Origin: Saccoglossus kowalevskii | Taxonomy: Eukaryota > Hemichordata > Enteropneusta > Harrimaniidae | Length of the DNA: 30,074 nucleotides | NCBI RefSeq assembly: GCF_000003605.2 | Contig: NW_003140078.1 | Coordinates: forward strand, 1-30,074 | Direction of reading: 5' to 3' | Part shown: positions 8 through 22,017 of the stretch, piece after piece | Layout: the number at the start of each line of letters is the position of its first letter | How positions within the stretch are numbered: the first letter of the stretch is position 1 | Made by a program: the position numbers and the translations under genes | The notes under the pieces: model-generated | The model's database searches: none | What the model saw: only the letters and a program-made list of their open reading frames with translations | What the model was told of the DNA's origin: nothing

Positions 8-62
8 CACGATACACGTGTCATGGTAAGATCATGGCAAATTCATTGAAAATCGTAATCAT

Positions 63-700
63 AATGGAAACACGATACACGTGTCATGGTAAGATCATGG
101 CAAATTCATTGCAAATGTAATCATAATGGAAACACGATACACGTGTCATAATAAGATTATGGCAAATTCATTGCAAATATAACCATGATGGAAACACGAT
201 ACACGTGTCATGTTAAGATCAAGGCAAATTCATTGCTAAAGTAATCATTATCGAAACAAGATACACGTGTCATGGTAAGATCATGGCAAATTCATTGCAA
301 ATGTAACCGTAATGGAAACACGATACGTCGTGTCATGGTAAGATCATGGCAAATTCATTGAAAATGTAATCATAATCGAAAGACGATACACGTGTCATAG
401 TAAGATCATGGCAAATTCATTGCAGATGTAATCATAATGGACTCACGATACACGTGTCATGGTACGATCATGGCAAATTCATAGAAAATTTAATTATTAT
501 GGAAACACGATACACGTGTCTGGTAAGATCATGGCAAATTCATTGCAAATGTAATTATAATCGAAAAACGATACACCTGTCATGATAAGATCATGGCAAA
601 TTCATTGCAAATGTAATCATAATCGAAACATGATACACGTGTCGTGGTAAGATCATGGCAAATTCATTGAAAATGTAATCATAATCGAAACACGATACAC
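63..700 (+). repeat. Alpha variant string, copy 1
   Basis: An ordered run of about ten diagnostic monomers. It holds ATAATAAGATTATGG with ATGATGG (GTGTC at 143), GATCAAGG with GCTAAAG and AAACAAG, AACCGTAATGG, a CGAAAGACG unit, ATAGTAAG with GCAGATG and ACTCACG, TACGATC with AATTTAATTATT, the 61-bp GTCTGG unit (GTGTC at 516), then CACCTGTCATGATAAG and GTCGTGG. Copy 2 lies 1178 bp downstream, exactly 19 monomers. This copy has private changes, including a 1-bp insertion at about 318 (GATACGTCGTG) and another at about 53 (AATCGTAATC). Confidence 0.9.
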
Positions 701-1214
701 GTGTCATGTTAAGATCATGGCAAATTCATTGCAAATGTAATCATATTCGAAACACGATACATGTGTCATGGTAAGATCATAGCAAATTCATTGAAAAAGT
801 AATCATAATGGAAACACGACACACGTGTCATGGTAAGACCATGGCAAATTCATTGCAAATGCAATCATAATCGAAACACGATACTCGTGTCATGGTAAAA
901 TCATGGCAAATTCATTTCAAATGTAATCATAATCGAAACACGATACACGGGTCATGGTAAGATCATGGCAAATTCATTGCAAATGTAATTATAATCGAAA
1001 CACGATACACCTGTCATGATAAGATCATGGCAAATTCATTGCAAATGTAATCATAATCGAAACACGATACACGTGTCGTGGTAAGATCATGGCAAATTCA
1101 TTGAAAATGTAATCATAATCGAAACACGATACACGTGTCATGTTAAGATCATGGCAAATTCATTGCAAATGTAATCATATTCGAAACACGATACACGTGT
1201 CATGGTAAGATCAT
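530..1214 (+). repeat. Four-monomer block present twice at 434-bp spacing
   Basis: CACCTGTCATGATAAG (CCTGTC at 576 and 1010), then GTCGTGG, ATGTTAAG (GTGTC at 701 and 1135) and CATATTCG recur exactly 7 x 62 bp apart. The intervening monomers carry GAAAAAG, AAGACC, ATGCAATC, ATACTCG and CACGGG and are not duplicated here. In the 27.6-28.6 kb region the equivalent interval lacks these seven monomers, giving 12-monomer spacing between GTCTGG units in place of 19. Confidence 0.85.
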
Positions 1215-1240
1215 GGCAAATTCATTGAAAATGTAATCAT

Positions 1241-1880
1241 AATGGAAACACGATACACGTGTCATGGTAAGATCATGGCAAATTCATTGCAAATGTAATC
1301 ATAATGGAAACACGATACACGTGTCATAATAAGATTATGGCAAATTCATTGCAAATATAACCATGATGGAAACACGATACACGTGTCATGGTAAGATCAA
1401 GGCAAATTCATTGCTAAAGTAATCATTATCGAAACAAGATACACGTGTCATGGTAAGATCATGGCAAATTCATTGCAAATGTAACCGTAATGGAAACACG
1501 ATACACGTGTCATGGTAAGATCATGGCAAATTCATTGAAAATGTAATCATAATCGAAAGACGATACACGTGTCATAGTAAGATCATGGCAAATTCATTGC
1601 ATATGTAATCATAATGGACTCACGATACACGTGTCATGGTACGATCATGGCAAATTCATTGAAAATTTAATTATTATGGAAACACGATACACGTGTCTGG
1701 TAAGATCATGGCAAATTCATTGCAAATGTAATTATAATCGAAACACGATACACCTGTCATGATAAGATCATGGCAAATTCATTGCAAATGTAATCATAAT
1801 CGAAACACGATACACGTGTCGTGGTAAGATCATGGCAAATTCATTGAAAATGTAATCATAATCGAAACACGATACACGTG
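1241..1880 (+). repeat. Alpha variant string, copy 2
   Basis: The same monomer order as copy 1, with ATAATAAG at GTGTC 1321 and the GTCTGG unit at 1693. One private difference is GCATATG in place of GCAGATG near 1600. It runs into the GTCGTGG unit at 1816, which also opens the 23-monomer duplication that follows. The segment from about 1280 to 2040 matches 17400-18160 at an offset of 16121 bp. Confidence 0.9.
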
Positions 1881-2124
1881 TCATGGTAAGATCATGGCAA
1901 ATTCATTGAAAATGTAATCATAATCGAAACATGATACACGTTTCATGGTAAGATCATGGCAAATTCATTGAAAATGTAATCATAATGGGAACACGATACA
2001 CGTGTCATGGTAAGATCATGGCAAATTTATTGCAAATATAACTATAATGGAAACACGATACACGTGTCATGGTAAGATCATGGCAAATTCATTGCAAATA
2101 TAACCAAAATGGAAACACGATACA

Positions 2125-3180
2125 CCTGTCATGGTAAGATCATGGCAAATTCATTGCAAATGTAATCATAATCGAAACACGATACACGGGTCATGGTAAG
2201 ATCATAGCAAATTCATTGAAAATGTAATCATAATCGAAAGACGATACACGTGTCATGATAAGATCATAGCAAATTCATTGAAAATGTAATCATAATCTTA
2301 CCACGATACACGTGTCTTGGTAAGATCATAGCAAATTCATTGAAAATGTAATCATAATCGAAACACGATACACGTGTCATGGTAAGATCATGGCAAATTC
2401 ATTGCAAATGTAATCATAATCGAAAGACGATAGACGTGTCATGGTAAGATCGTGGCAAATTCATTGAAAATGTAATCATAATCGAAAGACGATAGACGTG
2501 TCATGGTAAGATCATGGCAAATTCATTGAAAATGTAATCATAATCGAAACACGATAAACGTGTCATGGTAAGATCATGGTAAATTCATTGAAAATGTAAT
2601 CCTAATGAAAACACGATGCATGTGTCATGGTAAGATCATGACAAATTCATTGCAAATGCAATCATAATCGAAACACGATACACGTGTCATGTTAAGATCA
2701 TGGCAAATTCATTGCAAATGTAATCATATTCGAAACACGATACACGTGTCATGGTAAGATCATGGCAAATTCATTGCAAATATAACCATAATGGAAAGAC
2801 GATACACGTGTCATGGTAAGTCAATGGCAAATTCATTGAAAATGTAATCATAATCGAAACACGATACACGTGTCATGTTAAGATCATGGCAAATTCATTG
2901 CAAATGTAATCATATTCGAAACACGATACACGTGTCATGGTAAGATCATAGCAAATTCATTGAAAAAGTAATCATAATGATAACACGATACACGTATCAT
3001 GGTAAGACCATGGCAAATTCATTGCAAATGCAATCATAATCGAAACACGATACTCGTGTCATGGTAAAATCATGGCAAATTCATTTCAAATGTAATCATA
3101 ATCGAAACACGATACACGTGTCATGGTAAGATCATGGCAAATTCATTGCAGATGTAATGATAATCGAAACACGATACACG
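2125..3180 (+). repeat. Beta variant string, copy 1
   Basis: Ordered diagnostic monomers: CACCTG, CACGGG with ATCATAGC, CATGATAAG, ATCTTACC with GTCTTGG, two GATAGACG units (the first with GATCGTGG), GATAAACG, ATGGTAAATTC with ATCCTAATG, GATGCATG (2615), ATGACAAATTC with ATGCAATC, ATGTTAAG, CATATTCG, then a three-unit insert and a second ATGTTAAG/CATATTCG pair. It finishes with GAAAAAG, ATGATAACACG and ATACTCG. It matches 16325-17370 at an offset of 14200 bp, including the rare GATGTAATGATAATCG unit at 3151 and 17351. Confidence 0.92.
2295..2326 (+). repeat. Inverted repeat in a variant monomer, 9-bp arms and 14-nt loop
   Basis: Left arm ATCTTACCA at 2295-2303, loop 2304-2317, right arm TGGTAAGAT at 2318-2326. 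The arms are perfectly complementary, and the loop contains the palindrome ACACGTGT. An ordinary type-B monomer has ATCGAAACA at the left-arm position, so three substitutions within four bases create the dyad. No terminator role is implied; this is satellite DNA. Confidence 0.9.
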
Positions 3181-3550
3181 TGTCATGGTAAGATCATGGC
3201 AAATTCATTGCAAATGTAATCATAATCGAAACACGATACACGTGTCGTGGTAAGATCATGGCAAATTCATTGAAAATGTAATCATAATCGAAACACGATA
3301 CACGTGTCATGGTAAGATCATGGCAAATTCATTGAAAATGTAATCATAATCGAAACATGATACACGTGTCATGGTAAGATCATGGCAAATTCATTGAAAA
3401 TGTAATCATAATGGGAACACGATACACGTGTCATGGTAAGATCATGGCAAATTCATTGCAAATATAACTATAATGGAAACACGATACACGTGTCATGGTA
3501 AGATCATGGCAAATTCATTGCAAATATAACCAAAATGGAAACACGATACA

Positions 3551-4531
3551 CCTGTCATGGTAAGATCATGGCAAATTCATTGCAAATGTAATCATAATCG
3601 AAACACGATACACGGGTCATGGTAAGATCATAGCAAATTCATTGAAAATGTAATCATAATCGAAAGACGATACACGTGTCATGATAAGATCATAGCAAAT
3701 TCATTGAAAATGTAATCATAATCTTACCACGATACACGTGTCTTGGTAAGATCATAGCAAATTCATTGAAAATGTAATCATAATCGAAACACGATACACG
3801 TGTCATGGTAAGATCATGGCAAATTCATTGCAAATGTAATCATAATCGAAAGACGATAGACGTGTCATGGTAAGATCGTGGCAAATTCATTGAAAATGTA
3901 ATCATAATCGAAAGACGATAGACGTGTCATGGTAAGATCATGGCAAATTCATTGAAAACGTAATCATAATCGAAACACGATAAACGTGTCATGGCAAGAT
4001 CATGGTAAATTCATTGAAAATGTAATCCTAATGGAAACACGATGCATGTGTCATGGTAAGATCATGACAAATTCATTGCAAATGCAATCATAATCGAAAC
4101 ACGATACACGTGTCATGTTAAGATCATGGCAAATTCATTGCAAATGTAATCATATTCGAAACACGATACACGTGTCATGGTAAGATCATGGCAAATTCAT
4201 TGCAAATATAACCATAATGGAAAGACGATACACGTGTCATGGTAAGACCATGGCAAATTCATTGAAAATGTAATCATAATCGAAACACGATACACGTGTC
4301 ATGTTAAGATCATGGCAAATTCATTGCAAATGTAATCATATTCGAAACACGATACACGTGTCATGGTAAGATCATAGCAAATTCATTGAAAAAGTAATCA
4401 TAATGATAACACGATACACGTATCATGGTAAGACCATGGCAAATTCATTGCAAATGCAATCATAATCGAAAAACGATACTCGTGTCATGGTAAAATCATG
4501 GCAAATTCATTTCAAATGTAATCATAATCGA
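3551..4531 (+). repeat. Beta variant string, copy 2
   Basis: This is the downstream half of the 23-monomer duplication, with ATCTTACC at 3721, GATGCATG at 4041 and ATACTCG at 4476. It differs from copy 1 at scattered single bases, including AACGTAATC near 3958, CATGGCAAG near 3993 and AAAACGATACTCG near 4470. It ends in a CGAAAGACGATAGACG unit, so its 3' end has recombined with an internal beta monomer. Confidence 0.92.
3721..3752 (+). repeat. Inverted repeat, copy in beta 2
   Basis: Perfect arms at 3721-3729 and 3744-3752, exactly 1426 bp from the copy at 2295. Confidence 0.9.
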
Positions 4532-4779
4532 AAGACGATAGACGTGTCATGGTAAGATCATGGCAAATTCATTGAAAACGTAATCATAATCGAAACACGA
4601 TAAACGTGTCATGGTAAAATCATGGCAAATTCATTTCAAATGTAATCATAATCGAAAGACGATACACGTGTCATGGTAAGATCATGGCAAATTCATTGAA
4701 AACGTAATACATAATCGAAACACGATACACGTGTCATGGTAAGATCATGGTAAATTCATTGAAAATGTAATCATAATGG

Positions 4780-6130
4780 AAACACGATACACGTGTCATG
4801 GTAAGATCATGGCAAATTCATTGCAAATATAACCATAATGGAAACACGATACACGTGTCATGGTAAGATCATGGCAAATTCATTGCAAATATAACCATAA
4901 TGGAAACACGATACACGTGTCATGGTAAGATCATGGCAAATTCATTGCAAATATAACAATAATGGATACACGATACACGTGTCATTGTAAGATCATGGCA
5001 AATTCATTACAAATATAACCATAATGGAAACACGATACACGTGTCATTGTAAGATCATGGCAAATTCATTGCAAATATAACAATAATGGATACACGATAC
5101 ACGTGTCATGGTAAGATCATGGCAAATTCATTGCAGTTGTAATCAAAATGGAAACACGATACACGTGTCATGGTGAGATCATGGCAAATTCTATGCAAAT
5201 ATAACCATAATGGAAACACGATACAGGTATCATGTTAAGATCATGGCAAATTCATTGCAAATATAACCATAATGGAAACACGATACACGTGTCATGGTAA
5301 GATCATGGCAAATTCATTGCAAATATAACCATAATGGACACACTATACACGTATCATGGTAAGATCATGGCAAATTCATTGCAAATATAACCATAATGGA
5401 AACACGATACACGTGTCATGGTAAGATCATGGCAAATTCATTGAAAATGTAATCATAATCGAAACACGATCCACGTGTCATGGTAAGATCATGGCAAATT
5501 CATTGCAAATATAACCATAATGGAAACACGATACACGTGTCATGGTAAGATCATGGCAAATTCATTGCAAATATAACCATAATGGAAACACGATACACGT
5601 GTCATGGTAAGATCATGGCAAATTCATTGCAAATATAACCATAATGGACACACTATACACGTGTCATGGTAAGATCATGGCAAATTAATTGCAAATATAA
5701 CCATAATGGAAACACGATACACGTGTCATGGTAAGATCATGGCAAATTCATTGCAAATGTAATTATAATCGAAACACGATACACCTGTCATGGTAAGATC
5801 ATGGCAAATTCATTGCAAATGTAATCATAATCGAAACACGATACACGTGTCATGGTAAGATCATGGCAAATTCATTGAAAATGTAATCATAATCGAAACA
5901 CGATCCACGTGTCATGGTAAGATCATGGCAAATTCATTGCAAATATAACCATAATGGAAACACGATACACGTGTCATGGTAAGATCATGGCAAATTCATT
6001 GCAAATATAACCATAATGGAAACACGATACACGTGTCATGGTAAGATCATGGCAAATTCATTGCAAATATAACCATAATGGAAACACGATACACGTGTCA
6101 TGGTAAGATCATGGCAAATTCATTGCAAAT
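4780..6130 (+). repeat. Type-A-rich domain 1
   Basis: Mostly GCAAATATAACCATAATGG monomers with scattered A-family variants: GGATACACG with TCATTGTAAG, TTACAAATATAACC, GCAGTTG with AATCAAAATGG (5133), GTGAGATC with TTCTATGC, and GGACACACTATAC (CACTATA at 5341 and 5651). The segment 4690-5440 recurs at 18578-19328, offset 13888 bp, exactly 224 monomers. Two GATCCACG units sit at 5469 and 5903, seven monomers apart. Confidence 0.88.
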
Positions 6131-6224
6131 GTAATTATAATCAAAACACGATACACCTGTCATGGTAAGATCATGGCAAATTCATTGCAAATGTAATCAT
6201 AATCGAAACATGATACACGTGTCA

Positions 6225-6365
6225 TGGTAAGATCATGGGCAAATTCATTGCAGATGTAATCATAATGGACTCACGATACACGTGTCATGGTACGATCATG
6301 GCAAATTCATTGAAAATTTAATTATTATGGAAACACGATACACGTGTCTGGTAAGATCATGGCAA
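6225..6365 (+). repeat. Alpha string fragment
   Basis: Three consecutive alpha monomers (GCAGATG with ACTCACG, TACGATC with AATTTAATTATT, and the 61-bp GTCTGG unit) are embedded in an A/C-type stretch with no other alpha units. The first unit has an extra G (ATCATGGGCAAATTC near 6239). This looks like a short exchange product. Confidence 0.85.
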
Positions 6366-8215
6366 ATTCATTGAAAATGTAATCATAATCGAAACACGAT
6401 ACACGTGTCATGGTAAGATCATGGCAAATTCATTGAAAATGTAATCATAATCGAAACATGATACACGTGTCATGGTGAGATCATGGCAAATTCAATGCAA
6501 ATATAACCATAATGGAAACACGATACACGTATCATGGTAAGATCATGGCACATTCATTGCAAATATAACCATAATGGAAACACGATACACGTGTCATGGT
6601 AAGATCATGGCAAATTCATTGCAAATATAACCATAATGGACACACCATACACGTGTCATGGTAAGATCATGGCAAATTCATTGCAAATATAACCATAATG
6701 GAAACACGATACACGTGTCATGGTAAGATCACGCAAATTCATTGCAAATGTAATTATAATCGAAACACGATACACCTGTCATGGTAAGATCATGGCAAAT
6801 TCATTGCAAATGTAATCATAATCGAAACACGATACACGTGTCATGGTAAGATCATGGCAAATTCATTGAAAATGAAATCATAATCGAAACACGATACACG
6901 TGTCATGGTAAGATCATGGCAAATTCATTGCAAATATAACCATAATGGAAACACGATACACGTGTCATGGTAAGATCATGGCAAATTCATTGCAAATATA
7001 ACCATAATGGAAACACGATACACGTGTCATGGTAAGATCATGGCAAATTCATTGCAAATATAACCATAATGGAAACACGATACACGTGTCATGGTAAGAT
7101 CATGGCATATTCATTGTAAATATAACAATAATGGAAACACGATACACGTGTCATGGTAAGATCATGGAAAATTCATTGCAAATGTAATTATAATCAAAAC
7201 ACGATACACCTGTCATGCTAAGATCATGGCAAATTCATTGCAAATGTAATCATAATCGAAACACGATACACGGGTCATGGTAAGATTATGGCAAATTCAT
7301 TGAAAATGTAATCATAATCGAAACACGATACACGTGTCATGGTAAGATCATGGCAAATTCATTGAAAACGTAATCATAATCGAAACACGATACACGTGTC
7401 ATGGTAAGATCATGGTAAATTCATTGAAAATGTAATCATAATGGAAACACGATACACGTGTCATGGTGAGATCATGGCAAATTCAATGCAAATATAACCA
7501 TAATGGAAACACGATACACGTATCATGGTAAGATCATGGCAAATTCATTGCAAATATAACCATAATGGAAACACGATACACGTGTCATGGTAAGACCATG
7601 GCAAATTCATTGCAAATATAACCATAATGGAAACACGATACACCTGTCATGGTAAGATCATGGCAAATTCATTGCAAATATAACCATAATGGACACACTA
7701 TACACGTGTCATGGTAAGATCATGGCAAATTCATTGCAAATATAACAATAATGGAAACACGATACACGTGTCATGGTAAGATCATGGCAAATTCATTGCA
7801 AATATAACAATAATGGAAACACGATACACGTGTCATGGTAAGATCATGGCAAATTCATTGCAGTTGTAAACATAATGGAAACACGATACACGTGTCATGG
7901 TGAGATCATGGCAAATTCAATGCAAATATAACCATAATGGAAACACGATACACGTATCATAGTAAGATCATGGCAAATTCATTGCAAATATAACCATAAT
8001 GAAAACACGATACACGTGTCATGGTAAGATCATGGCAAATTCATTGCAAATATAACCATAATGGACACACTATACACGTGTCATGGTAAGATCATGGCAA
8101 ATTCATTGCAAATATAACCATAATGGAAACACGATACACGTGTCATGGTAAGATCATGACAAATTCATTGCAAATGTAATTATAATCGAAACACGATACA
8201 CGTGTCATGGTAAGA

Positions 8216-8590
8216 TCATGGCAAATTCATTGCAAATATAACCATAATCGAAACACGATACACATGTCATGGTAAGATCATGGCATATTTATTGCAAATA
8301 TAACAATAATGGAAACACGATACACGTGTCATGGTAAGATCATGGCAAATTCATTGCAAATATAACCATAATGGAAACACGATACACGTGTCATGGTAAG
8401 ATCATGGCAAATTCATTGCAAATATAACCATAATGGAAACACGATACACGTGTCATGGTAAGATCATGGCAAATTCATTGCAAATATAACCATAATGGAA
8501 ACACGATACACGTGTCATGGTAAGATCATGGCATATTTATTGCAAATATAACAATAATGGAAACACGATACACGTGTCATGGTAAGATCA
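8216..8590 (+). repeat. GCATATTTATTG block, copy 1
   Basis: Two GCATATTTATTG monomers 248 bp apart (8283 and 8531), enclosing three type-A units and preceded by a CACATGTC unit. The same block occurs at 24149/24397 and 26133/26381 with the same 248-bp spacing. Confidence 0.88.
8440..8501 (+). repeat. Reference type-A monomer (62 bp)
   Basis: This is a clean example of the commonest subtype. Counting from CACGATAC, it contains ACACGTGT at unit positions 7-14, TCATGG at 14-19 and again at 25-30, CAAATTCATTG at 31-41, and the type-A tail AAATATAACCATAATGG at 43-59. The GATC at 23-26 is present in nearly every monomer of the window. The positions around TCATGGTAAGA, TCATGGCAAAT and TCATTGCAAAT look like three degenerate copies of an 11-bp subrepeat. 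Runs of identical type-A monomers occur, for example four in a row ending near 18361. Confidence 0.95.
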
Positions 8591-9889
8591 TGGCAAATTC
8601 ATTGCAAATATAACCATGATGGAAACACGATACACGTGTCATGGTAAGATCATGGCAAATTCATTGCAAATATAACCATAATGGAAACACGATACACGTG
8701 TCATGGTAAGATCATGGCAAATTCATTGCAAATATAACCATAATGGAAACACGATACACGTGTCATGGTAAGATCATGGCAAATTCATTGCAAATATAAC
8801 AATAATGGAAACACGATACACGTGCCATGGTAAGATCATGGCAAATTCATTGCAGTTGTAATCATAATGGAAACACGATACACGTGTCATGGTGAGATCA
8901 TGGCAAATTCAATGCAAATATAACCATAATGGAAACACGATACACGTATCATGGTAAGATCATGGCAAATTCATTGCAAATATAACCATAATGGAAACAC
9001 GATACACGTGTCATGGTAAGATCATGGCAAATTCATTGCAAATATAACCATAATGGACACACTATACACGTGTCATGGTAAGATCATGGCAAATTCATTG
9101 CAAATATAACCATAATGGAAACACGATACACATGTCATGGTAAGATCATGGCAAATTCATTGCAGTTGTAATCATAATGGAAACACGATACACGTGTCAT
9201 GGTGAGATCATGGCAAATTCAATGCAAATATAACCATAATGAAAACACGATACACGTATCATGGTAAGATCATGGCAAATTCATTGCAAATATAACCATA
9301 ATGGAAACACGATACACGTGTCATGGTAAGATCATGGCAAATTCATTGCAAATATAACCATAATGGACACACTATACACGTGTCATGGTAAGATCATGGC
9401 AAATTCATTGCAAATATAACCATAATGGAAACACGATACACGTGTCATGGTAAGATCATGGCAAATTCATTGCAAATATAACAATAATGGAAACACGATA
9501 CACGCGTCATGGTGAGATCATGGCAAATTCAATGCAAATATAACCATAATGGAAACACGATACACGTATCATGGTAAGATCATGGCAAATTTATTGCAAA
9601 TATAACCATAATGGAAACACGATACACGTGTCATGGTAAGATCATGGCAAATTCATTGCAAATGTAATCATAATGGAAACACGATACACGTGTCATGGTA
9701 AGATCATGTCAAATTCATTGCAAATATAACCATAATGGAAAGACGATACACGTGTCATGGTAAGATCATGGCAAATTCATTTCAAATATAACCATAATGG
9801 AAACACGATTCACGTGTCATGGTAAGATCATGGCAAATTCATTGCAAATATAACAATAATGGAAACACGATACACGTGTCATGGTAAGA

Positions 9890-10620
9890 TCATGGCAAAT
9901 TCATTGCAAATGTAATCATAATCGAAACACGATACACCTGTCATGATAAGATCATGGCAAATTCATTGCAAATGTAATCATAATCGAAACACGATACACG
10001 TGTCGTGGTAAGATCATGGCAAATTCATTGCAAATGTAATCATAATCGAAACACGATACACGGGTCATGGTAAGATTATGGCAAATTCATTGAAAATGTA
10101 ATCATAATCGAAACACGATACACGTGTTATGGTAAGATCATGGCAAATTCATTGAAAACGTAATCATAATCGAAACACGATACACGTGTCATGGTAAGAT
10201 CATGGCAAATTCACTGAAAATGTAATCATAATTGAAACACGATACACGTGTCGTGGTAAGATCATGGCAAATTCATTGAAAATGTAATCATAATGGAAAC
10301 ACGATACACGTGTCATGGTAAGATCATGGCAAATTCATTGCAAATATAACCATAATGGAAACACGATACACGTGTCATGGTAAGATCATGGCAAATTCAT
10401 TGCAAATATAACCATAATGGAAACACGATACACGTATCATGGTAAGATCATGGCAAATTCATTGCAAATATAACAATAATGGAAACACGATACACGTATC
10501 ATGGTAAGATCATGGCAAATTCATTGCAAATGTAATTATAATCAAAACATGATACACCTGTCATGGTAAGATCATGGCAAATTCATTGCAAATGTAATCA
10601 TAATCGAAACACGATACACG
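9890..10620 (+). repeat. Segment matching 24454-25184 at 14564 bp offset
   Basis: Shared rare units in order: CACCTGTCATGATAAG, GTCGTGG, CACGGG with AAGATTATGG, GTGTTATGG (10123 and 24687), AACGTAATC, TTCACTG with ATAATTG, GTCGTGG, type-A units, and ACATGATACACCTG (10547 and 25111). The offset is 235 monomers minus 6 bp, which equals the net indels I count between them. Confidence 0.88.
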
Positions 10621-10726
10621 GGTCATGGTAAGATCATGGCAAATTCATTGAAAATGTAATCATAATCGAATGACGATACACGTGTCATGATAAGATCATA
10701 GCAAATTCATTGAAAATGTAATCATA

Positions 10727-10758
10727 ATCTTACCACGATACACGTGTCATGGTAAGAT
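10727..10758 (+). repeat. Inverted repeat outside a full beta string
   Basis: Perfect arms at 10727-10735 and 10750-10758. The loop ends GTCA, not GTCT, so the neighbouring GTCTTGG change is absent. The unit sits in a short beta remnant (CACGGG, CGAATGACG, CATGATAAG, ATCATAGC) that begins near 10610, and is followed by ordinary monomers. This shows that the inverted repeat does not depend on the GTCTTGG variant. Confidence 0.88.
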
Positions 10759-11029
10759 CATGGCAAATTCACTGAAAATGTAATCATAATCGAAACACGA
10801 TACACGTGTCATGGTAAGATCATGGCAAATTCATTGCAAATATAATCATAATGGAAACACGATACACGTGTCATGGTAAGATCATGGCAAATTCATTGCA
10901 AATATAACAATAATGGAAACACGATACACGTGTCATGGTAAGATCATGGCAAATTCATTGCAAATGTAATTATAATCAAAACACGATACACCTGTCATGC
11001 TAAGATCATGGCAAATTCATTGCAATTGT

Positions 11030-11745
11030 AATCATAAACGAAACACGATACACGGGTCATGGTAAGATCATAGCAAATTCATTGAAAATGTAATCATAAT
11101 CGAAAGACGATACACGTGTCATGATAAGATCATAGCAAATTCATTGAAAATGTAATCATAATCTTACCACGATACACGTGTCTTGGTAAGATCATAGCAA
11201 ATTCATTGAAAATGTAATCATAATCGAAACACGATACACGTGTCATGGTAAGATCATGGCAAATTCATTGCAAATGTAATCATAATTGAAAGACGATAGA
11301 CGTGTCATGGTAAGATCATGGCAAATTCATTGAAAATGTAATCATAATCGAAAGACGATAGACGTGTCATGGTAAGATCATGGCAAATTCATTGAAAACG
11401 TAATCATAATCGAAACACGATAAACGTGTCATGGTAAGATCATGGTAAATTCTTTGAAAATGTAATCCTAATGGAAACACGATGCATGTGTCATGGTAAG
11501 ATCATGACAAATTCATTGCAAATGCAATCATAATCGAAACACGATACACGTGTCATGTTAGGATCATGGCAAATTCATTGCAAATGTAATCATATTCGAA
11601 ACACGATACACGTGTCATGGTAAGATCATAGCAAATTCATTGAAAAAGTAATCATAATGGAAACACGATACACGTGTCATGGTAAGACCATGGCAAATTC
11701 ATTGCAAATGCAATCATAATCGAAACACGATACACGTGTCATGGT
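11030..11745 (+). repeat. Beta variant string, copy 3, short form
   Basis: It carries ATCTTACC at 11161 and GATGCATG at 11481, exactly 7440 bp (120 monomers) from copy 2. Only four monomers separate GATGCATG from the ATGCAATC-following unit at its 3' end, against seven in copies 1, 2 and 5. It lacks the three-unit insert between the two ATGTTAAG/CATATTCG pairs. Private variants are AAATTCTTTG near 11450 and GTTAGGATC near 11559. Both reappear in copy 8. Confidence 0.9.
11161..11192 (+). repeat. Inverted repeat, copy in beta 3
   Basis: Perfect 9-bp arms, followed by GTCTTGG-type context, 434 bp (7 monomers) after the copy at 10727. Confidence 0.9.
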
Positions 11746-11814
11746 AAGATCATGGCAAATTCATTTAAAATGGAATAATAATGGAAACACGATACACGTA
11801 TCATGGTAAGATCA

Positions 11815-12075
11815 TGGCAAATTCATTGCGAAAGTAATCATTATCGAAACAAGATACACGTGTCATGGTAAGATCATGGCAAATTCATTGCAAATGTAAC
11901 CGTAATGGAAACACGATACACGTGTCATGGTAAGATCATGGCAAATTCATTGAAAATGTAATCATAATCGAAAGACGATACACGTGTCATAGTAAGATCA
12001 TGGCAAATTCATTGCAGATGTAATCATAATGGAATCACGATACACGTGTCATGGTACGATCATGGCAAATTCATT
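11815..12075 (+). repeat. Alpha-like fragment with GGAATCACG subtype
   Basis: Units with GCGAAAG, AAACAAG, AACCGTAATGG, CGAAAGACG, ATAGTAAG, GCAGATG and TACGATC recur in alpha order, but with GCGAAAG for GCTAAAG and GGAATCACG for GGACTCACG. The same two changes appear together at 15540-15790. This is a sublineage of the alpha string that separated before amplification, and it lacks the GTCTGG unit. Confidence 0.85.
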
Positions 12076-12652
12076 GAAAATGTAATCATAATCGAAACAC
12101 GATACACGTGTCATGGTAAGATCATGGCAAATTCACTGAAAATGTAATCATAATTGAAACACGATACACGTGTCGTGGTAAGATCATGGCAAATTCATTG
12201 AAAATGTAATCATAATGGAAACACGATACACGTCTCATGGTAAGATCATGGCAAATTCATTGCAAATATAACCATAATGGAAACACGATACACGTGTCAT
12301 GGTAAGATCATGGCAAATTCATTGAAAATGTAATCATAATCGAAAGACGATACACGTGTCATAGTAAGATCATGGCAAATTCATTGCAGATGTAATCATA
12401 ATGGAATCACGATACACGTGTCATGGTACGATCATGGCAAATTCATTGAAAATGTAATCATAATCGAAACACGATACACGTGTCATGGTAAGATCATGGC
12501 AAATTCACTGAAAATGTAATCATAATTGAAACACGATACACGTGTCGTGGTAAGATCATGGCAAATTCATTGAAAATGTAATCATAATGGAAACACGATA
12601 CACGTCTCATGGTAAGATCATGGCAAATTCATTGCAAATATAACCATAATGG
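11909..12652 (+). repeat. Tandem 372-bp duplication (6 monomers)
   Basis: GCAGATG with GGAATCACG at 12014 and 12386, and the rare GTCTCATGG (CGTCTC at 12231 and 12603), both recur at exactly 6 x 62 bp. Units between them also match: TACGATC, TTCACTG with ATAATTG, and GTCGTGG. The first copy has type B at its left end after AACCGTAATGG; the second is preceded by type A. CGTCTC occurs only in these two monomers, so the duplication is recent. Confidence 0.92.
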
Positions 12653-12789
12653 AAACACGATACACGTGTCATATTAAGATCATGGCAAATTCATTGCAAA
12701 TATAATCATAATGGAAACACGATACACGTGTCATGGTAAGATCATGGCAAATTCATTGCAAATGAAACAATAATGGAAACACGATACAC

Positions 12790-14975
12790 GTATCATGGTA
12801 AGATCATCGGCAAATTCATTGCAAATGTAATTATAATCAAACACGATACACCTGTCATGGTAAGATCATGGCAAATTCATTGCAAATGTAATCATAATCG
12901 AAACACGATACACGGGTCATGGTAAGATTATGGCAAATTCATTGAAAACGTAATCATAATCGAAACACGATACACGTGTCATGGTAAGATCATGGCAAAT
13001 TCATTGAAAACGTAATCATAATCGAAACACGATACACGTGTCATGGTAAGATCATGGTAAATTCATTGCAAATATAATCATAATGGAAACACGATACACG
13101 TGTCATGGTAAGATCATGGCAAATTCATTGCAAATATAACCATAATGGAAACACGATACACGTGTCATGGTAAGATCATGGCAAATTCATTGCAAATATA
13201 ACCATAATGGAAACACGATACACGTGTCATGGTAAAGATCATGGCAAATTCCTTACAAATATAACCATAATGGAAACACGATACACGTGTCATGGTAAGA
13301 TCATGGCAAATTCATTGCAAATATAACAATAATGGATACACGATACACGTGTCATGGTAAGATCATGGCAATTTCATTGCAATTGTAATCATAATGGAAA
13401 CACGATACACGTGTCATGGTGAGATCATGGCAAATTCTATGCAAATATAACCATAATGGAAACACGATACACGTATCATGGTAAGATCATGGCAAATTCA
13501 TTGCAAATATAACCATAATGGAAACACGATACACGTGTCATGGTAAGATCATGGCAAATTCATTGCAAATATAATCATAATGGACACACTATACACGTAT
13601 CATGGTAAGATCATGGCAAATTCATTGAAAATATAATCATAATCGAAACACGATACACGTGTCATGGTAAGATCATGGCAAATTCATTGAAAATGTAATC
13701 ATAATCGAAACACGATACACGTGTCATGGTAAGATCATGGTAAATTCATTGAAAATGTAATCATAATGGAAACACGATACACCTGTCATGGTAAGATCAT
13801 GGCAAATTCATTGCAAATATAACCATAATGGACACACTATACACGTGTCATGGTAAGATCATGGCAAATTCATTGCAAATATAACCATAATGGAAACACG
13901 ATACACGTGTTATTGGTAAGATCATGGCAATTTCATTGCAAATGTAATTATAATGGAAACACGATACACGTGTCATGGTAAGATCATGGCAAATTCATTG
14001 CAAATATAACCATAATGGAAACACGATACACGTGTCATGGTAAGATCATGGCATATTCATTGCAAATATAACCATAATGGAAACACGATACACGTGTTAT
14101 TGGTAAGATCATGGCAAATTCATTGCAAATATAACCATAATGGAAACACGATACACGTATCATGGTAAGATCATGGCAAATTCATTGCAAATATAACCAT
14201 AATGGAAACACGATACACGTGTCATGGTAAGATCATGGCAAATTCATTGCAAATATAACAATAATGGATACACGATACACGTGTCATGGTAAGATCATGG
14301 CAAATTCATTGCAGTTGTAATCAAAATGGAAACACGATACACGTGTCATGGTGAGATCATGGCAAATTCTATGCAAATATAACCATAATGGAAACACGAT
14401 ACACGTATCATGGTAAGATCATGGCAAATTCATTGCAAATATAACCATAATGGACACACTATACACGTGTCATGGTAAGATCATGGCAAATTCATTGCAA
14501 ATATAACCATAATGGAAACACGATACACGTGTCATGGTAAGATCATGGCAATTCATTGCAAATGTAATTATAATCGAAACACGATACACCTGTCATGGTA
14601 AGATCATGGCAAATTCATTGCAAATGTAATCATAATCGAAACACGATACACGTGTCATGGTAAGATCATGGCAAATTCATTGAAAATGTAATCATAATCG
14701 AAACACGATCCACGTGTCATGGTAAGATCATGGCAAATTCATTGCAAATATAACCATAATGGAAACACGATACACGTGTCATGGTAAGATCATGGCAAAT
14801 TCATTGCAAATATAACCATAATGGAAACACGATACACGTGTCATGGTAAGATCATGGCAAATTCATTGCAAATATAACCATAATGGAAACACGATACACG
14901 TGTCATGGTAAGATCATGGCAAATTCATTGCAAATGTAATTATAATCAAAACACGATACAGCTGTCATGGTAAGA
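12790..14975 (+). repeat. Type-A-rich domain 3 with clustered 1-bp indels
   Basis: Mostly type-A units with CACTATAC markers at 13587, 13835 and 14457 and a GCAGTTG unit at 14311. Six single-base length changes fall here: ATCATCGGC near 12808, an A loss near 12840, GGTAAAGATC near 13235, GTTATTGG near 13909 and 14098, and GGCAATTC near 14549. The two GTTATTGG monomers share a compound change and must be copies of each other, three monomers apart. Confidence 0.85.
13649..13710 (+). repeat. Reference type-B monomer (62 bp)
   Basis: This clean type-B unit shares unit positions 1-40 with type A but has GAAAATGTAATCATAATCG in place of GCAAATATAACCATAATGG. The final ATCG adds a third CpG per unit. 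Type B dominates the alpha and beta variant strings, while type A dominates the homogeneous stretches between them, so the two subtypes are clustered and not randomly mixed. Confidence 0.93.
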
Positions 14976-15345
14976 TCATGGCAAATTCATTGCAAATGTA
15001 ATCATAATCGAAACACGATACACGGGTCATGGTAAGATCATAGCAAATTCATTGAAAATGTAATCATAATCGAAAGACGATACACGTGTCATGATAAGAT
15101 CATAGCAAATTCATTGAAAATGTAATCATAATCTTACCACGATACACGTGTCTTGGTAAGATCATAGCAAATTCATTGAAAATGTAATCATAATCGAAAC
15201 ACGATACACGTGTCATGGTAAGATCATGGCAAATTCATTGCAAATGTAATCATAATCGAAAGACGATAGACGTGTCATGGTAAGATCGTGGCAAATTCAT
15301 TGAAAATGTAATCATAATCGAAAGACGATAGACGTGTCATGGTAA
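14975..15345 (+). repeat. Beta variant string, copy 4, truncated
   Basis: It contains CACGGG with ATCATAGC, CATGATAAG, ATCTTACC at 15131 with GTCTTGG, and two GATAGACG units, the first with GATCGTGG as in copies 1, 2 and 5. It stops at an AAGACAATGG unit near 15347 and passes into ordinary units, so the GATAAACG to CATATTCG half is missing. A GCTGTC variant stands at the CACCTG position near 14961. Confidence 0.88.
15131..15162 (+). repeat. Inverted repeat, copy in beta 4
   Basis: Perfect 9-bp arms in the truncated beta string. Confidence 0.9.
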
Positions 15346-15534
15346 GACAATGGCAAATTCATTGCAAATGTAATCATAATCGAAACACGATACACGTGTC
15401 ATGGTAAGATCATGGCAAATTCATTGCAAATGTAATCATAATCGAAACACGATACACGTGTCATGGTAAGATCATGGCAAATTCATTTAAAATGGAATAA
15501 TAATGGAAACACGATACACGTGTCATGGTAAGAT

Positions 15535-15795
15535 CATGGCAAATTCATTGCGAAAGTAATCATTATCGAAACAAGATACACGTGTCATGGTAAGATCATG
15601 GCAAATTCATTGCAAATGTAACCGTAATGGAAACACGATACACGTGTCATGGTAAGATCATGGCAAATTCATTGAAAATGTAATCATGATCGAAAGACGA
15701 TACACGTGTCATAGTAAGATCATGGCAAATTCATTGCAGATGTAATCATAATGGAATCACGATACACGTGTCATGGTACGATCATGGCAAATTCA
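15535..15795 (+). repeat. Second copy of the GGAATCACG alpha sublineage
   Basis: It shares GCGAAAG, AACCGTAATGG, GCAGATG and GGAATCACG with 11815-12075, and both are preceded by the same unusual monomer with TCATTTAAAATGGAATAATAATGG (11762 and 15484). A private change is ATCATGATCG near 15685. It then continues into a CACGGG and ATCTTACC unit, unlike the 11.9-kb copy. Confidence 0.85.
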
Positions 15796-15874
15796 TTGAA
15801 AATGTAATCATAATCGAAACACGATACACGGGTCATGGTAAGATCATGGCAAATTCATTGAAAATGTAATCATA

Positions 15875-15968
15875 ATCTTACCACGATACACGTGTCATGA
15901 TAAGATCATAGCAAATTCATTGAAAATGTAATCATAATCTTACCACGATACACGTGTCATGGTAAGAT
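15875..15968 (+). repeat. Two adjacent hairpin monomers
   Basis: Left arms at 15875 and 15937, exactly one monomer apart. This is the only place where the variant occurs in consecutive units. The first has a decayed right arm (TGATAAGAT at 15898-15906, one mismatch) because it also carries the CATGATAAG change. The second is perfect (right arm 15960-15968) with a GTCA loop end. The pair suggests a one-monomer duplication or conversion within the beta remnant that starts near 15825. Confidence 0.88.
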
Positions 15969-16324
15969 CATGGCAAATTCACTGAAAATGTAATCATAAT
16001 CGAAACACGATACACGTGTCGTGGTAAGATCATGGCAAATTCATTGAAAATGTAACCATAATGGAAACACGATACACATGTCATGGTAAGATCATGGCAA
16101 ATTCATTGCAAATATAACCATAATGGAAACATGATACACGTATCATGGTAAGATCATGGCAAATTCATTGCAAATATAATCATAATGGAAACACGATACA
16201 CGTGTCATGGTAAGATCATGGCAAATTCATTGCAAATATAACAATAATGGAAACACGATACACGTGTCATGGTAAGATCATGGCAAATTCATTGCAAATG
16301 TAATTATAATCAAAACACGATACA

Positions 16325-17380
16325 CCTGTCATGGTAAGATCATGGCAAATTCATTGCAAATGTAATCATAATCGAAACACGATACACGGGTCATGGTAAG
16401 ATCATAGCAAATTCATTGAAAATGTAATCATAATCGAAAGACGATACACGTGTCATGATAAGATCATAGCAAATTCATTGAAAATGTAATCATAATCTTA
16501 CCACGATACACGTGTCTTGGTAAGATCATAGCAAATTCATTGAAAATGTAATCATAATCGAAACACGATACACGTGTCATGGTAAGATCATGGCAAATTC
16601 ATTGCAAATGTAATCATAATCGAAAGACGATAGACGTGTTATGGTAAGATCGTGGCAAATTCATTGAAAATGTAATCATAATCGAAAGACGATAGACGTG
16701 TCATGGTAAGATCATGGCAAATTCATTGAAAACGTAATCATAATCGAAACACGATAAACGTGTCATGGTAAGATCATGGTAAATTCATTGAAAATGTAAT
16801 CCTAATGGAAACACGATGCATGTGTCATGGTAAGATCATGACAAATTCATTGCAAATGCAATCATAATCGAAACACGATACACGTGTCATGTTAAGATCA
16901 TGGCAAATTCATTGCAAATGTAATCATATTCGAAACACGATACACGTGTCATGGTAAGATCATGGCAAATTCATTGCAAATATAACCATAATGGAAAGAC
17001 GATACACGTGTCATGGTAAGACCATGGCAAATTCATTGAAAATGTAATCATAATCGAAACACGATACACGTGTCATGTTAAGATCATGGCAAATTCATTG
17101 CAAATGTAATCATATTCGAAACACGATACACGTGTCATGGTAAGATCATAGCAAATTCATTGAAAAAGTAATCATAATGATAACACGATACACGTATCAT
17201 GGTAAGACCATGGCAAATTCATTGCAAATGCAATCATAATCGAAACACGATACTCGTGTCATGGTAAAATCATGGCAAATTCATTTCAAATGTAATCATA
17301 ATCGAAACACGATACACGTGTCATGGTAAGATCATGGCAAATTCATTGCAGATGTAATGATAATCGAAACACGATACACG
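16325..17380 (+). repeat. Beta variant string, copy 5, long form
   Basis: Nearly identical to copy 1, with ATCTTACC at 16495, GATGCATG at 16815 and ATACTCG at 17250. All are 14200 bp from copy 1, which is 229 monomers plus a net 2 bp. It retains the three-unit insert and both CATATTCG units. It carries a private GTGTTATGG near 16638 and is followed immediately by alpha copy 3. Confidence 0.92.
16495..16526 (+). repeat. Inverted repeat, copy in beta 5
   Basis: Perfect 9-bp arms, 1364 bp (22 monomers) after the copy at 15131. Confidence 0.9.
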
Positions 17381-17424
17381 TGTCATGGTAAGATCATGGC
17401 AAATTCATTGAAAATGTAATCATA

Positions 17425-18065
17425 ATGGAAACACGATACACGTGTCATAATAAGATTATGGCAAATTCATTGCAAATATAACCATGATGGAAACACGATA
17501 CACGTGTCATGGTAAGATCAAGGCAAATTCATTGCTAAAGTAATCATTATCGAAACAAGATACACGTGTCATGGTAAGATCATGGCAAATTCATTGCAAA
17601 TGTAACCGTAATGGAAACACGATACACGTGTCATGGTAAGATCATGGAAAATTCATTGAAAATGTAATCATAATCGAAAGACGATACACGTGTCATAGTA
17701 AGATCATGGCAAATTCATTGCAGATGTAATCATAATGGACTCACGATACACGTGTCATGGTACGATCATGGCAAATTCATTGAAAATTTAATTATTATGG
17801 AAACACGATACACGTGTCTGGTAAGATCATGGCAAATTCATTGCAAATGTAATTATAATCGAAACACGATACACCTGTCATGATAAGATCATGGCAAATT
17901 CATTGCAAATGTAATCATAATCGAAACACGATACACGTGTCGTGGTAAGATCATGGCAAATTCATTGAAAATGTAATCATAATCGAAACACGATACACGT
18001 GTCGTGGTAAGATCATGGCAAATTCATTGAAAATGTAATCATAATCGAAATATGATACACGTGTC
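17425..18065 (+). repeat. Alpha variant string, copy 3
   Basis: Full-length alpha string with the ATAATAAG unit at 17442 and the 61-bp GTCTGG unit at 17814, both 16121 bp from their copy-2 counterparts. It begins directly after beta copy 5, as copy 2 sits next to beta copy 1, although the order of the two strings is reversed. A private change is TATGATAC near 18050. Confidence 0.9.
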
Positions 18066-18099
18066 ATGGTAAGATCATGGCAAATTCATTGAAAATGTA

Positions 18100-19330
18100 A
18101 TCATAATGGGAACACGATACACGTGTCATGGTAAGATCATGGCAAATTCATTGCAAATATAACCATAATGGAAACACGATACACGTGTCATGGTAAGATC
18201 ATGGCAAATTCATTGCAAATATAACCATAATGGAAACACGATACACGTGTCATGGTAAGATCATGGCAAATTCATTGCAAATATAACCATAATGGAAACA
18301 CGATACACGTGTCATGGTAAGATCATGGCAAATTCATTGCAAATATAACCATAATGGAAACACGATACACGTGTCATGGTAAGATCATGGCAAATTCATT
18401 GCAAATGTAATTATAATCAAAACACGATACACCTGTCATGGTAAGATCATGGCAAATTCATTGCAAATGTAATCATAATCGAAACACGATACACGGGTCA
18501 TGGTAAGATTATGGCAAATTCATTGAAAATGTAATCATAATCGAAACACGATACACGTGTCATGGTAAGATCATGGCAAATTCATTGAAAACGTAATCAT
18601 AATCGAAACACGATACACGTGTCATGGTAAGATCATGGTAAATTCATTGAAAATGTAATCATAATGGAAACACGATACACGTGTCATGGTAAGATCATGG
18701 CAAATTCATTGCAAATATAACCATAATGGAAACACGATACACGTGTCATGGTAAGATCATGGCAAATTCATTGCAAATATAACCATAATGGAAACACGAT
18801 ACACGTGTCATGGTAAGATCATGGCAAATTCATTGCAAATATAACAATAATGGATACACGATACACTTGTCATTGTAAGATCATGGCAAATTCATTACAA
18901 ATATAACCATAATGGAAACACGATACACGTGTCATTGTAAGATCATGGCAAATTCATTGCAAATATAACAATAATGGATACACGATACACGTGTCATGGT
19001 AAGATCATGGCAAATTCATTGCAGTTGTAATCAAAATGGAAACACGATACACGTGTCATGGTGAGATCATGGCAAATTCTATGCAAATATAACCATAATG
19101 GAAACACGATACACGTATCATGTTAAGATCATGGCAAATTCATTGCAAATATAACCATAATGGAAACACGATACACGTGTCATGGTAAGATCATGGCAAA
19201 TTCATTGCAAATATAACCATAATGGACACACTATACACGTATCATGGTAAGATCATGGCAAATTCATTGCAAATATAACCATAATGGAAACACGATACAC
19301 GTGTCATGGTAAGATCATGGCAAATTTCAT
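18100..19330 (+). repeat. Type-A-rich domain 4
   Basis: It opens with four consecutive identical type-A monomers (ending near 18361), then a C/CACGGG/B series, then 18578-19328, which repeats 4690-5440. The shared markers include GGATACACG with TCATTGTAAG twice, TTACAAATATAACC, and GCAGTTG with AATCAAAATGG at 19021. A private ACACTTGTC appears near 18866. Confidence 0.88.
18423..18484 (+). repeat. Reference type-C monomer (CACCTG variant, 62 bp)
   Basis: This subtype has CACCTG where others have CACGTG, so the 8-bp ACACGTGT palindrome is lost. It almost always follows a unit ending AATTATAATCAAAA or AATTATAATCGAAA and is often followed by a CACGGGTCATGG unit. The fixed order of these three monomers recurs many times (for example near 7200, 10550, 16320, 18430, 23200, 25110 and 28960). 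They therefore travel as a block. Confidence 0.9.
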
Positions 19331-19409
19331 TGCAAATGTAATTATAATCAAAAACACGATACACCTGTCATGGTAAGATCATGGCAAATTCATTGCAAAT
19401 GTAATCATA

Positions 19410-20010
19410 ATCGAAACACGATACACGGGTCATGGTAAGATCATAGCAAATTCATTGAAAATGTAATCATAATCGAAAGACGATACACGTGTCATGATAA
19501 GATCATAGCAAATTCATTGAAAATGTAATCATAATATTACCACGATACACGTGTCTTGGTAAGATCATAGCAAATTCATTGAAAATGTAATCATAATCGA
19601 AACACGATACACGTGTCATGGTAAGATCATGGCAAATTCATTGCAAATGTAATCATAATCGAAAGACGATAGACGTGTCATGGTAAGATCATGGCAAATT
19701 CATTGAAAATGTAATCATAATCGAAAGACGATAGACGTGTCATGGTAAGATCATGGCAAATTCATTGAAAACGTAATCATAATCGAAACACGATAAACGT
19801 GTCATGGTAAGATCATGGTAAATTCATTGAAAATGTAATCCTAATGGAAACACGATGCATGTGTCATGGTAAGATCATGACAAATTCATTGCAAATGCAA
19901 TCATAATCGAAACACGATACACGTGTCATGTTAAGATCATGGCAATTCATTGCAAATGTAATCATATTCGAAACACGATACACGTGTCATGGTAAGATCA
20001 TGGCAAATTC
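19410..20010 (+). repeat. Beta variant string, copy 6
   Basis: It has CACGGG, ATCATAGC, CATGATAAG, the hairpin unit at 19534 (here ATATTACC), GTCTTGG, two GATAGACG units, GATAAACG, GATGCATG at 19854, ATGCAATC, ATGTTAAG and CATATTCG. Two 1-bp losses in A runs near 19946 and 20016 set it apart. Copy 7 follows at 680 bp, which is 11 monomers minus these 2 bp. Confidence 0.9.
19534..19565 (+). repeat. Inverted repeat with one arm mismatch, beta 6
   Basis: The left arm reads ATATTACCA (19534-19542), one base off the perfect complement of TGGTAAGAT at 19557-19565. This is a later decay, since the next copy, 680 bp on, is perfect. Confidence 0.88.
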
Positions 20011-20179
20011 ATTGCAATATAATCATAATGGAAAGACGATACACGTGTCATGGTAAGATCATGACAAATTCATTGAAAATGTAATCATAATCGAAACACG
20101 ATACACGTGTCATGGTAAGATCATGGCAAATTCATTGCAAATGTAATCATATTCGAAACCCGATACACGTGTCGTGGTA

Positions 20180-20645
20180 AGATCATAGCAATTTCATTGA
20201 AAATGTAATCATAATCTTACCACGATAAACGTGTCTTGGTAAGATCATAGCAAATTCATTGAAAATGTAATCATAATCGAAACACGATACACGTGTCATG
20301 GTAAGATCATGGCAAATTCATTGCAAATGTAATCATAATCGAAAGACGATAGACGTGTCATGGTAAGATCATGGCAAATTCATTGAAAATGTAATCATGA
20401 TCAAAAGACGATAGACGTGTCATGGTAAGATCATGGCAAATTCATTGAAAACGTAATCATAATCGAAACACGATAAACGTGTCATGGTAAGATCATGGTA
20501 AATTCATTGAAAATGTAATCCTAATGGAAACACGATGCATGTGTCATGGTAAGATCATGACAAATTCATTGCAAATGCAATCATAATCGAAACACGATAC
20601 ACGTGTCATGTTAAGATCATGGCAAATTCATTGCAAATGTAATCA
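20180..20645 (+). repeat. Beta variant string, copy 7, tandem to copy 6
   Basis: The hairpin unit is at 20214 and GATGCATG at 20534. The string begins inside an ATCATAGC unit following GTCGTGG and AAACCCGATAC, so the CACGGG and CATGATAAG monomers are absent. It ends after ATGTTAAG, where the expected CATATTCG is replaced by an ordinary CATAATCG unit leading into CACGGG with AAGATTATGG. Private variants are GATAAACG next to the hairpin and ATGATCAAAAGACG near 20400. Confidence 0.9.
20214..20245 (+). repeat. Inverted repeat, copy in beta 7
   Basis: Arms are perfect; the loop carries GATAAACG for GATACACG, so the ACACGTGT palindrome in the loop is broken in this copy only. Confidence 0.9.
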
Positions 20646-22017
20646 TAATCGAAACACGATACACGGGTCATGGTAAGATTATGGCAAATTCATTGAAAAT
20701 GTAATCATAATCGAAATACGATACACGTGTCATGGTAAGATCATGGCAAATTCATTGAAAACGTAATCATAATCGAAACACGATACACGTGTCATGGTAA
20801 GATCATGGTAAATTCATTGAAAATGTAATCATAATGGAAACACGATACACGTGTCATGGTGAGATCATGGCAAATTCAATGCAAATATAACCATAATGGA
20901 AACACGATACACGTATCATGGTAAGATCATGGCAAATTCATTGCAAATATAACCATAATGGAAACACGATACACGTGTCATGGTAAGATCATGGCAAATT
21001 CATTGCAAATGTAATCATAATCGAAAGACGATAGACGTGTCATGGTAAGATCATGGCAAATTCATTGAAAATGTAATCATAATGGAAAGACGATACACGT
21101 GTCATGGTAAGATCATGACAAATTCATTGCAAACGTAATTATAATCGAAACACGATACACGTGTCATGGTAAGATCATGGTAAATTCATTGCAAATGTAA
21201 TCAAAATGGAAACACGATACACGTGTCATCGTGAGATCATGGCAAATTCTATGCAAATATAACCATAATGGAAACACGATACACGTATCATGGTAAGATC
21301 ATGGCAAATTCATTGCAAATATAACCGTAATGGAAACACGATACACGTGTCATGGTAAGATCATGGCAAATTCATTGCAAATATAACCATAATGGACACA
21401 CTATACACGTGTCATGGTAAGATCATGGCAAATTCATTGCAAATATAACCATAATGGAAACACGATACACGTGTCATGGTAAGATCATGGCAAATTCATT
21501 GCAAATGTAATTATAATCGAAACACGATACACCTGTCATGGTAAGATCGTGGCAAATTCATTGCAAATGTAATCATAATCGAAACACGATACACGTGTCA
21601 TGGTAAGATCATGGCAAATTCATTGAAAATGTAATCATAATCGAAACACGATCCACGTGTCATGGTAAGATCATGGCAAATTCATTGCAAATATAACCAT
21701 AATGGAAACACGATACACGTGTCATGGTAAGATCATGGCAAATTCATTGCAAATATAACCATAATGGAAACACGATACACGTGTCATGGTAAGATCATGG
21801 CAAATTCATTGCAAATATAACCATAATGGAAACACGATACACGTGTCATGGTAAGATCATGGCAAATTCATTGCAAATGTAATTATAATCAAAACACGAT
21901 ACACCTGTCATGGTAAGATCATGGCAAATTCATTGCAAATGTAATCATAATCGAAACACGATACACGGGTCATGGTAAGATTATGGCAAATTCATTGAAA
22001 ATGTAATCATAATCGAA

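What the first reader, a model, noticed from the sequence alone, without database searches (positions are those of the whole stretch)
2295..2326. Three clustered substitutions create a perfect inverted repeat: a template-switch mutation spread through the satellite
Ordinary type-B monomers read ATCGAAACA where this variant reads ATCTTACCA. The three changes within four bases make it the exact reverse complement of TGGTAAGAT, which lies 14 nt downstream in every monomer. Independent point mutations are an unlikely route. Copying from the nearby opposite strand during replication (template switching at a stalled fork) explains all three at once. Nine intact copies (2295, 3721, 10727, 11161, 15131, 15937, 16495, 20214, 29630) and two with one arm mismatch (15875, 19534) show that later amplification carried it. 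The ACACGTGT palindrome in the loop gives a nested dyad that might itself favour hairpins.
Basis: partly seen in the sequence, partly recalled or inferred. Interest (0 to 1): 0.72.

Follow-up and report, generated by a model that had tools for sequence, protein, structure and literature searches.

The report
Template-switch hairpin mutation in satellite DNA
Within a 62-base satellite repeat, three neighbouring base changes turned a nearly matching hairpin into a perfect one, most likely in one copying slip that later repeat shuffling multiplied; the slip is a known kind of mutation and nothing points to a function.

Summary
The window is a 62-bp satellite (484 complete monomers) with nine perfect 9-bp inverted repeats and two with one arm mismatch, as stated; a second contig of the same 572-Mb genome holds 13 more. 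The plain form equals an existing monomer (21 copies in the window) plus only the three substitutions. Best explanation: one quasipalindrome-to-palindrome template switch copying TGGTAAGAT. For: 1 of 27 triples at these positions gives a 9-nt arm (2 of 27 in the actual neighbourhood); random triples do so locally in 61 of 20,000 trials; no direct donor over 5 nt in the window; no close intermediate found. Against: three changes are too few for proof. A simplified log-probability ratio passes the published cutoff in 1 of 40 settings, the fragment lacks G and so fails a published filter, and 5 of 17 control clusters also lack close intermediates. The copies are not independent: about one event, spread by duplication and exchange. 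No other cluster makes an arm of 9. A clean instance of a known mutation type.

The parts
8..30074 (+). 62-bp satellite array, 484 complete monomers, about 91% mean pairwise identity, no dominant higher-order period among lags 1-299
2295..2303 (+). left arm ATCTTACCA, differing from ATCGAAACA at 2298, 2299 and 2301; extended arm 2291-2303
2304..2317 (+). 14-nt spacer CGATACACGTGTCT; its last base is the linked A48T change
2318..2326 (+). right arm TGGTAAGAT, unchanged and inferred to be the template sequence
3721..3752 (+). intact copy with T48; 8 left and 13 right flanking monomers shared with the 2295 copy (at most 2 differences each)
10727..10758 (+). intact copy without T48; whole monomer equals ordinary monomer B plus the three substitutions
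11161..11192 (+). intact copy with T48
15131..15162 (+). intact copy with T48
15875..15906 (+). chimeric monomer: variant left half, neighbour-type right half (A51, A61); one arm mismatch, arms not paired in the predicted fold
15937..15968 (+). intact copy without T48, equal to monomer B plus the three substitutions
16495..16526 (+). intact copy with T48
19534..19565 (+). copy with T48 and a C28A change in the left arm (ATATTACCA)
20214..20245 (+). intact copy with T48; spacer also carries C40A
29630..29661 (+). intact copy with T48
2357..2388 (+). ordinary monomer B at the same register (ATCGAAACA...TGGTAAGAT), the inferred ancestral form, with three arm mismatches

Best explanation
One quasipalindrome-to-palindrome template switch in an ordinary monomer of type B. 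Shown: B holds imperfect arms (6 of 9 matching; 9 of 13 over the longer arm), and the plain variant equals B plus G29T, A30T and A32C, which makes the 9-nt arms perfect. Inferred: a stalled nascent strand briefly copied TGGTAAGAT, either by folding back on itself (bottom-strand synthesis) or by moving to the complementary parental or sister strand (top-strand synthesis). It wrote 4 to 9 reverse-complement bases, then returned to its normal template. Shown by shared neighbours: the variant multiplied by segment duplication and unequal exchange, giving a T48/A61 haplotype (15 copies), a plain haplotype (8 copies) and one chimera over two contigs. No function is indicated.
For: Exact three-base difference from B, which has 21 copies in the window and 44 in both contigs. 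At these positions 1 of 27 triples gives an arm of 9 or more; the next best is 5. Site-averaged null: 6 of 3,348, 61 of 20,000 with a local template, and 5 of 20,000 reach the observed 13-nt match anywhere in the array. Longest direct-orientation match in the rest of the window 5 nt, against 13 nt in reverse complement. Only 1 of 25 cluster types makes an arm of 9. Nearest partial carrier 4 or more differences away while an exact ancestor exists. Shared flanks and the same neighbours show descent. Arm homogenisation by template switching is documented in yeast (PMC8604942, section 5 read).
Against: The log-probability ratio in my simplified version of the Walker et al. model exceeds their cutoff of 9 in 1 of 40 settings; at the array's own divergence (t=0.09) it is at most 1.79. 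ATCTTACCA contains no G, so it fails their all-four-nucleotides filter (filter). In the actual neighbourhood 2 of 27 triples reach arm 9, and with the array's spectrum the outcome has probability 0.032 given three changes there. Transversions are common here (63 of 105 other minor alleles), so three transversions carry no weight. The monomer is rich in near-palindromes: 84 pairings of 9-mers with 1 to 3 mismatches. With the whole array as template 711 of 20,000 random triples give 9 or more. Five of 17 other clusters also lack close intermediates.
Confidence: 0.75

Rival explanations
1. A one-step multinucleotide error of another kind (for example error-prone translesion synthesis) changed three bases without an inverted template, and the match to TGGTAAGAT is luck.
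For: Such errors are a known source of small mutation clusters (PMC7954356 passages). Site-specific chance is 1 to 2 in 27, not negligible.
Against: Site-averaged chance is 0.2 to 0.3%.
Confidence: 0.13
2. Stepwise point mutations in one monomer lineage, with intermediates lost by turnover of the array.
For: Copies of 189 distinct monomers make up 484, so forms multiply and are lost. Five other clusters also lack close intermediates. T30 exists without the other two changes in two monomers of C3793 and, with A29, in three of the window.
Against: The two T30-only carriers differ from the variants at 4 or more other positions. All three changes lie within four bases and fit one template.
Confidence: 0.07
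3. Gene conversion or insertion of a short tract from an unrelated direct-orientation donor.
For: Exchange probably shaped the 15850 monomer.
Against: No direct match over 5 nt to the changed core in the rest of the window. In the own genome the full intact pattern was reported only in the two satellite contigs; the core alone was not searched genome-wide.
Confidence: 0.05

Closest known systems
Quasipalindrome-associated template-switch mutation (arm homogenisation), e.g. UTP5 in S. cerevisiae (PMC8604942; abstract and section 5 read)
   Same: An imperfect inverted repeat becomes perfect through clustered substitutions on one arm; arm length (9 here, 7-16 there) and spacer (14 here, at most 70 there) fall in their range.
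   Different: Here in a satellite, then multiplied by array duplication; no strain phylogeny to polarise the change, only monomer paralogues.
Short-range template switches in great apes, four-point model (PMC7954356; abstract, sections 7 and 14, passages)
   Same: A reverse-complement template within 100 nt explains a cluster of changes.
   Different: Below their significance cutoff in 39 of 40 settings tried, and the fragment lacks G, failing their four-nucleotide filter. The authors state that many conversions of near-perfect to perfect inverted repeats are classed as non-significant.
Template switching creating or repairing stems of RNA genes (PMC8794818; abstract, outline and opening text seen)
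   Same: One event makes or perfects a stem.
   Different: No RNA gene or selection on pairing is indicated here.

Membership tests
Quasipalindrome-associated template-switch mutation | Ancestor holds an imperfect inverted repeat that the change makes perfect | tested here: met
   6 of 9 to 9 of 9 matching arm positions; exact ancestral form present
Quasipalindrome-associated template-switch mutation | All clustered changes explained by one nearby inverted template, more than chance | tested here: met
   6 of 3,348 and 61 of 20,000 site-averaged; but 1 to 2 in 27 site-specific
Quasipalindrome-associated template-switch mutation | Changes arose in one step | tested here: inconclusive
   No close intermediates among 952 monomers, but 5 of 17 control clusters also lack them
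Quasipalindrome-associated template-switch mutation | Arises by polymerase switching at a stalled fork | not testable with these tools
   Needs mutation assays
Significant four-point template switch (PMC7954356) | Log-probability ratio of 9 or more | tested here: not met
   1 of 40 settings of a simplified re-implementation passes
Significant four-point template switch (PMC7954356) | Copied fragment contains all four nucleotides | tested here: not met
   ATCTTACCA, and CATAATCTTACCA, contain no G (sequence; filter)
Regular higher-order repeat satellite | Fixed multi-monomer unit repeated along the array | tested here: not met
   Of lags 1-299, the best exact-match lag (206 monomers) covers 8% of monomers

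The most novel reading that the evidence does not exclude
Template switching may recur in this satellite between monomers, not only within one. The variant left arm in the 15850 monomer does not match that monomer's present right arm, which would have given ATCTTATCA, and the longest match to the event (13 nt) lies in other monomers, those carrying T58. Satellites would then act as recorders in which each switch is amplified and can be counted. Plain exchange between neighbouring monomers explains 15850 more simply.
Probability: 0.08. Interest if true: 0.55.

Novelty: new member of a known kind. Interest (0 to 1): 0.3.

Why it matters
Satellite monomer variants are often treated as independent point mutations (recalled). 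If clustered variants arise in one step by inverted copying, monomer trees and divergence dates are distorted. Because arrays amplify such events, they could help measure template switching where single-copy scans lack power. Three paper searches on satellites plus template switching (20 of 37, 4 of 4 and 2 of 2 papers listed) showed no title or abstract start describing such an event in satellite monomers; only listings were seen, so this is no proof that none is in print.

Tried and rejected
Nested ACACGTGT hairpin: not in the predicted folds. Nine copies as independent support: rejected because flanks are shared. T48 as exclusive to the variant: true in the window, false with the second contig, where four GAAA monomers carry T48. 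Window-only control suggesting that the variant is unique in lacking intermediates: softened after adding the second contig. Function or selection: not supported; 32 of 104 minor alleles reach 11 or more copies in the window. Other template-switch clusters: none with arm 9 or more among 25 types; that scan used one copy of each type and dropped monomers with indels. One single-copy two-change cluster makes a self-palindrome of 8 (ACAGCTGT), which falls to 2 when the template is the unchanged sequence. Public collections: no exact match to a 28-base or a 22-base consensus word in genome contigs or to the 28-base word in viral contigs; no blastn match of window 2000-4000 in plasmids or phages; no paper held any of six sequence words. 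Related species could not be compared: the genome has no relatives in the genome search.

Full report
WHAT IS THERE. The window is one satellite array, period 62 (TRF). A cyclic alignment to the consensus gives 484 complete monomers, 189 distinct, with 91.3% mean identity over 20,000 sampled pairs. Four columns are major polymorphisms (12 C/A, 17 G/A, 21 T/C, 28 G/C). The own genome has 572,110,611 bases in 4,830 contigs and the window is 1-30074 of contig C3118. The size, and a Ty3/gypsy-type pol fragment at the edge of the second array (RNase H and integrase domains; the Ty3/gypsy label is recalled), suggest a eukaryote; I could not name it.

CHECK OF THE OBSERVATION. Nine perfect copies and two one-mismatch copies are where stated. 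Genome-wide the intact pattern was reported at 22 places, 9 in the window and 13 in C3793; the tool warns that counts of repeats are lower bounds. TGGTAAGAT is in 383 of 484 monomers. The match extends beyond nine bases: the variant's CATAATCTTACCA is the reverse complement of TGGTAAGATTATG, present in 10 other window monomers that carry T58. Within its own monomer the pairing is 12 of 13 in the two plain window copies, 11 of 13 in seven of the eight T48 copies, and 10 of 13 in the eighth and in the chimera.

ANCESTRY AND SPREAD. Eight window copies share T48 and A61; seven of the eight follow the same preceding monomer (A12 C28 G33 A51 A61). Two copies (monomers 10702 and 15912) equal ordinary monomer B (A12 C28) plus the three substitutions, and one (15850) joins a variant left half to that neighbour's right half. 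Pairs share up to 8 monomers to the left and 14 to the right, at most 2 differences each. C3793 has 509 aligned units, of which 468 complete ones at 75% identity or more were kept; 13 are further copies, 7 with T48/A61 and 6 plain, each plain one followed by a C9 monomer. Together there are 24 copies in 952 monomers. Three of the 13 (monomers 14092, 17006 and 18863 in reverse-complement coordinates) have a different preceding monomer. A monomer with G33 and A51 is followed by the variant in 18 of 19 cases; the exception looks like loss of the variant monomer. This is descent from about one event. Whether the plain form is ancestral or a recombinant that lost T48/A61 is undecided.

TESTS OF ONE-STEP ORIGIN. 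On monomer B, 1 of 27 triple changes at these positions makes an arm of 9 or more; the next best gives 5. In the true neighbourhood of 2295 it is 2 of 27. Over all placements of three changes within four bases (outer two plus one inner), 6 of 3,348 reach 9. On real monomers 61 of 20,000 reach 9 with a local template; 711 of 20,000 reach 9 and 5 of 20,000 reach 13 with the whole array, variant monomers excluded, as template. With the array's own mutation spectrum the three outcomes have joint probability 0.032 given change; transversions are common in it (63 of 105). No direct-orientation match over 5 nt exists in the rest of the window. Of 25 cluster types only this one makes an arm of 9; the other two independent three-change types give 6 and 0, and the one-copy C28A derivative gives 5 (one copy per type, monomers with indels dropped).

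INTERMEDIATES. In the window no monomer has one or two of the changes with the other cluster columns ordinary; three carry T30 together with A29. With C3793 added, two monomers carry T30 alone, on a background 4 or more differences away. All 18 multi-copy clusters in the combined set have some partial carrier; for this cluster and five others the nearest is 4 or more differences away, while only this cluster among those six has an exact ancestor at distance 0. This favours one step but does not prove it.

MODEL SCORE. A simplified log-probability ratio after Walker et al. (PMC7954356; sections 14 and 7 read; passages) passes their cutoff of 9 in 1 of 40 settings (20 with and 20 without a template-position penalty). 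The copied fragment has no G and so fails their four-nucleotide filter. They say that many conversions of near-perfect to perfect inverted repeats are classed as non-significant because they often produce few changes. In yeast, all 10 genes with arms of 9 to 11 bp exceeded simulation (PMC8604942 section 5).

STRUCTURE. Predicted DNA folds put the nine-base arms together in the variant (2295-2326: -6.5 kcal/mol against -4.5 for the ordinary 2357-2388; whole monomer on the minus strand -8.9, z -3.53, 0 of 200 shuffles as good, against -6.6, z -1.37). The 15850 chimera does not pair the arms. The ordinary monomer's ACACG/CGTGT hairpin competes; that stem is intact in 283 of 484 monomers and ACACGTGT in 339.

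MECHANISM (inferred). If the bottom strand was being made, the right arm was copied first and the nascent strand could fold back with a 2-base foothold (TG) and leave over GAT. If the top strand was being made, the foothold is CATAATC against GATCATG or GATTATG on the complementary template, 6 or 7 matching bases, with exit over CA. The second has the longer foothold, but the data do not decide.

VERDICT. A good example of a known mutation type in an unusual setting. Favoured at about 0.75; interest modest.

Noticed in passing
window monomers 101, 1279, 17400, 26755, 27994: A50 A51 T58 together make a perfect 6-bp inverted repeat CATAAT-AAG-ATTATG from CATGGT-AAG-ATCATG; another possible arm-perfecting change, but the single changes also occur.
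   Followed up: partly
window 22049-22103: A 55-bp monomer with a 7-bp deletion (ATCGAAACACGATACAC to ATCGATACAC), possibly between short CGA repeats.
   Followed up: no
window about 2819-2826: AGATCATGG reads AGTCAATGG, three adjacent changes perhaps better read as a one-base deletion plus one-base insertion; single copy.
   Followed up: partly
C3793 (L007, L008): Edge of the satellite next to a Ty3/gypsy-type pol fragment; in reverse-complement coordinates a non-satellite stretch at about 4307-4626 repeats part of the flank.
   Followed up: partly
columns 39-46 of the monomers (register), window-wide: ACACGTGT palindrome, containing an E-box-like CACGTG (name recalled), intact in 339 of 484 monomers.
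   Followed up: no
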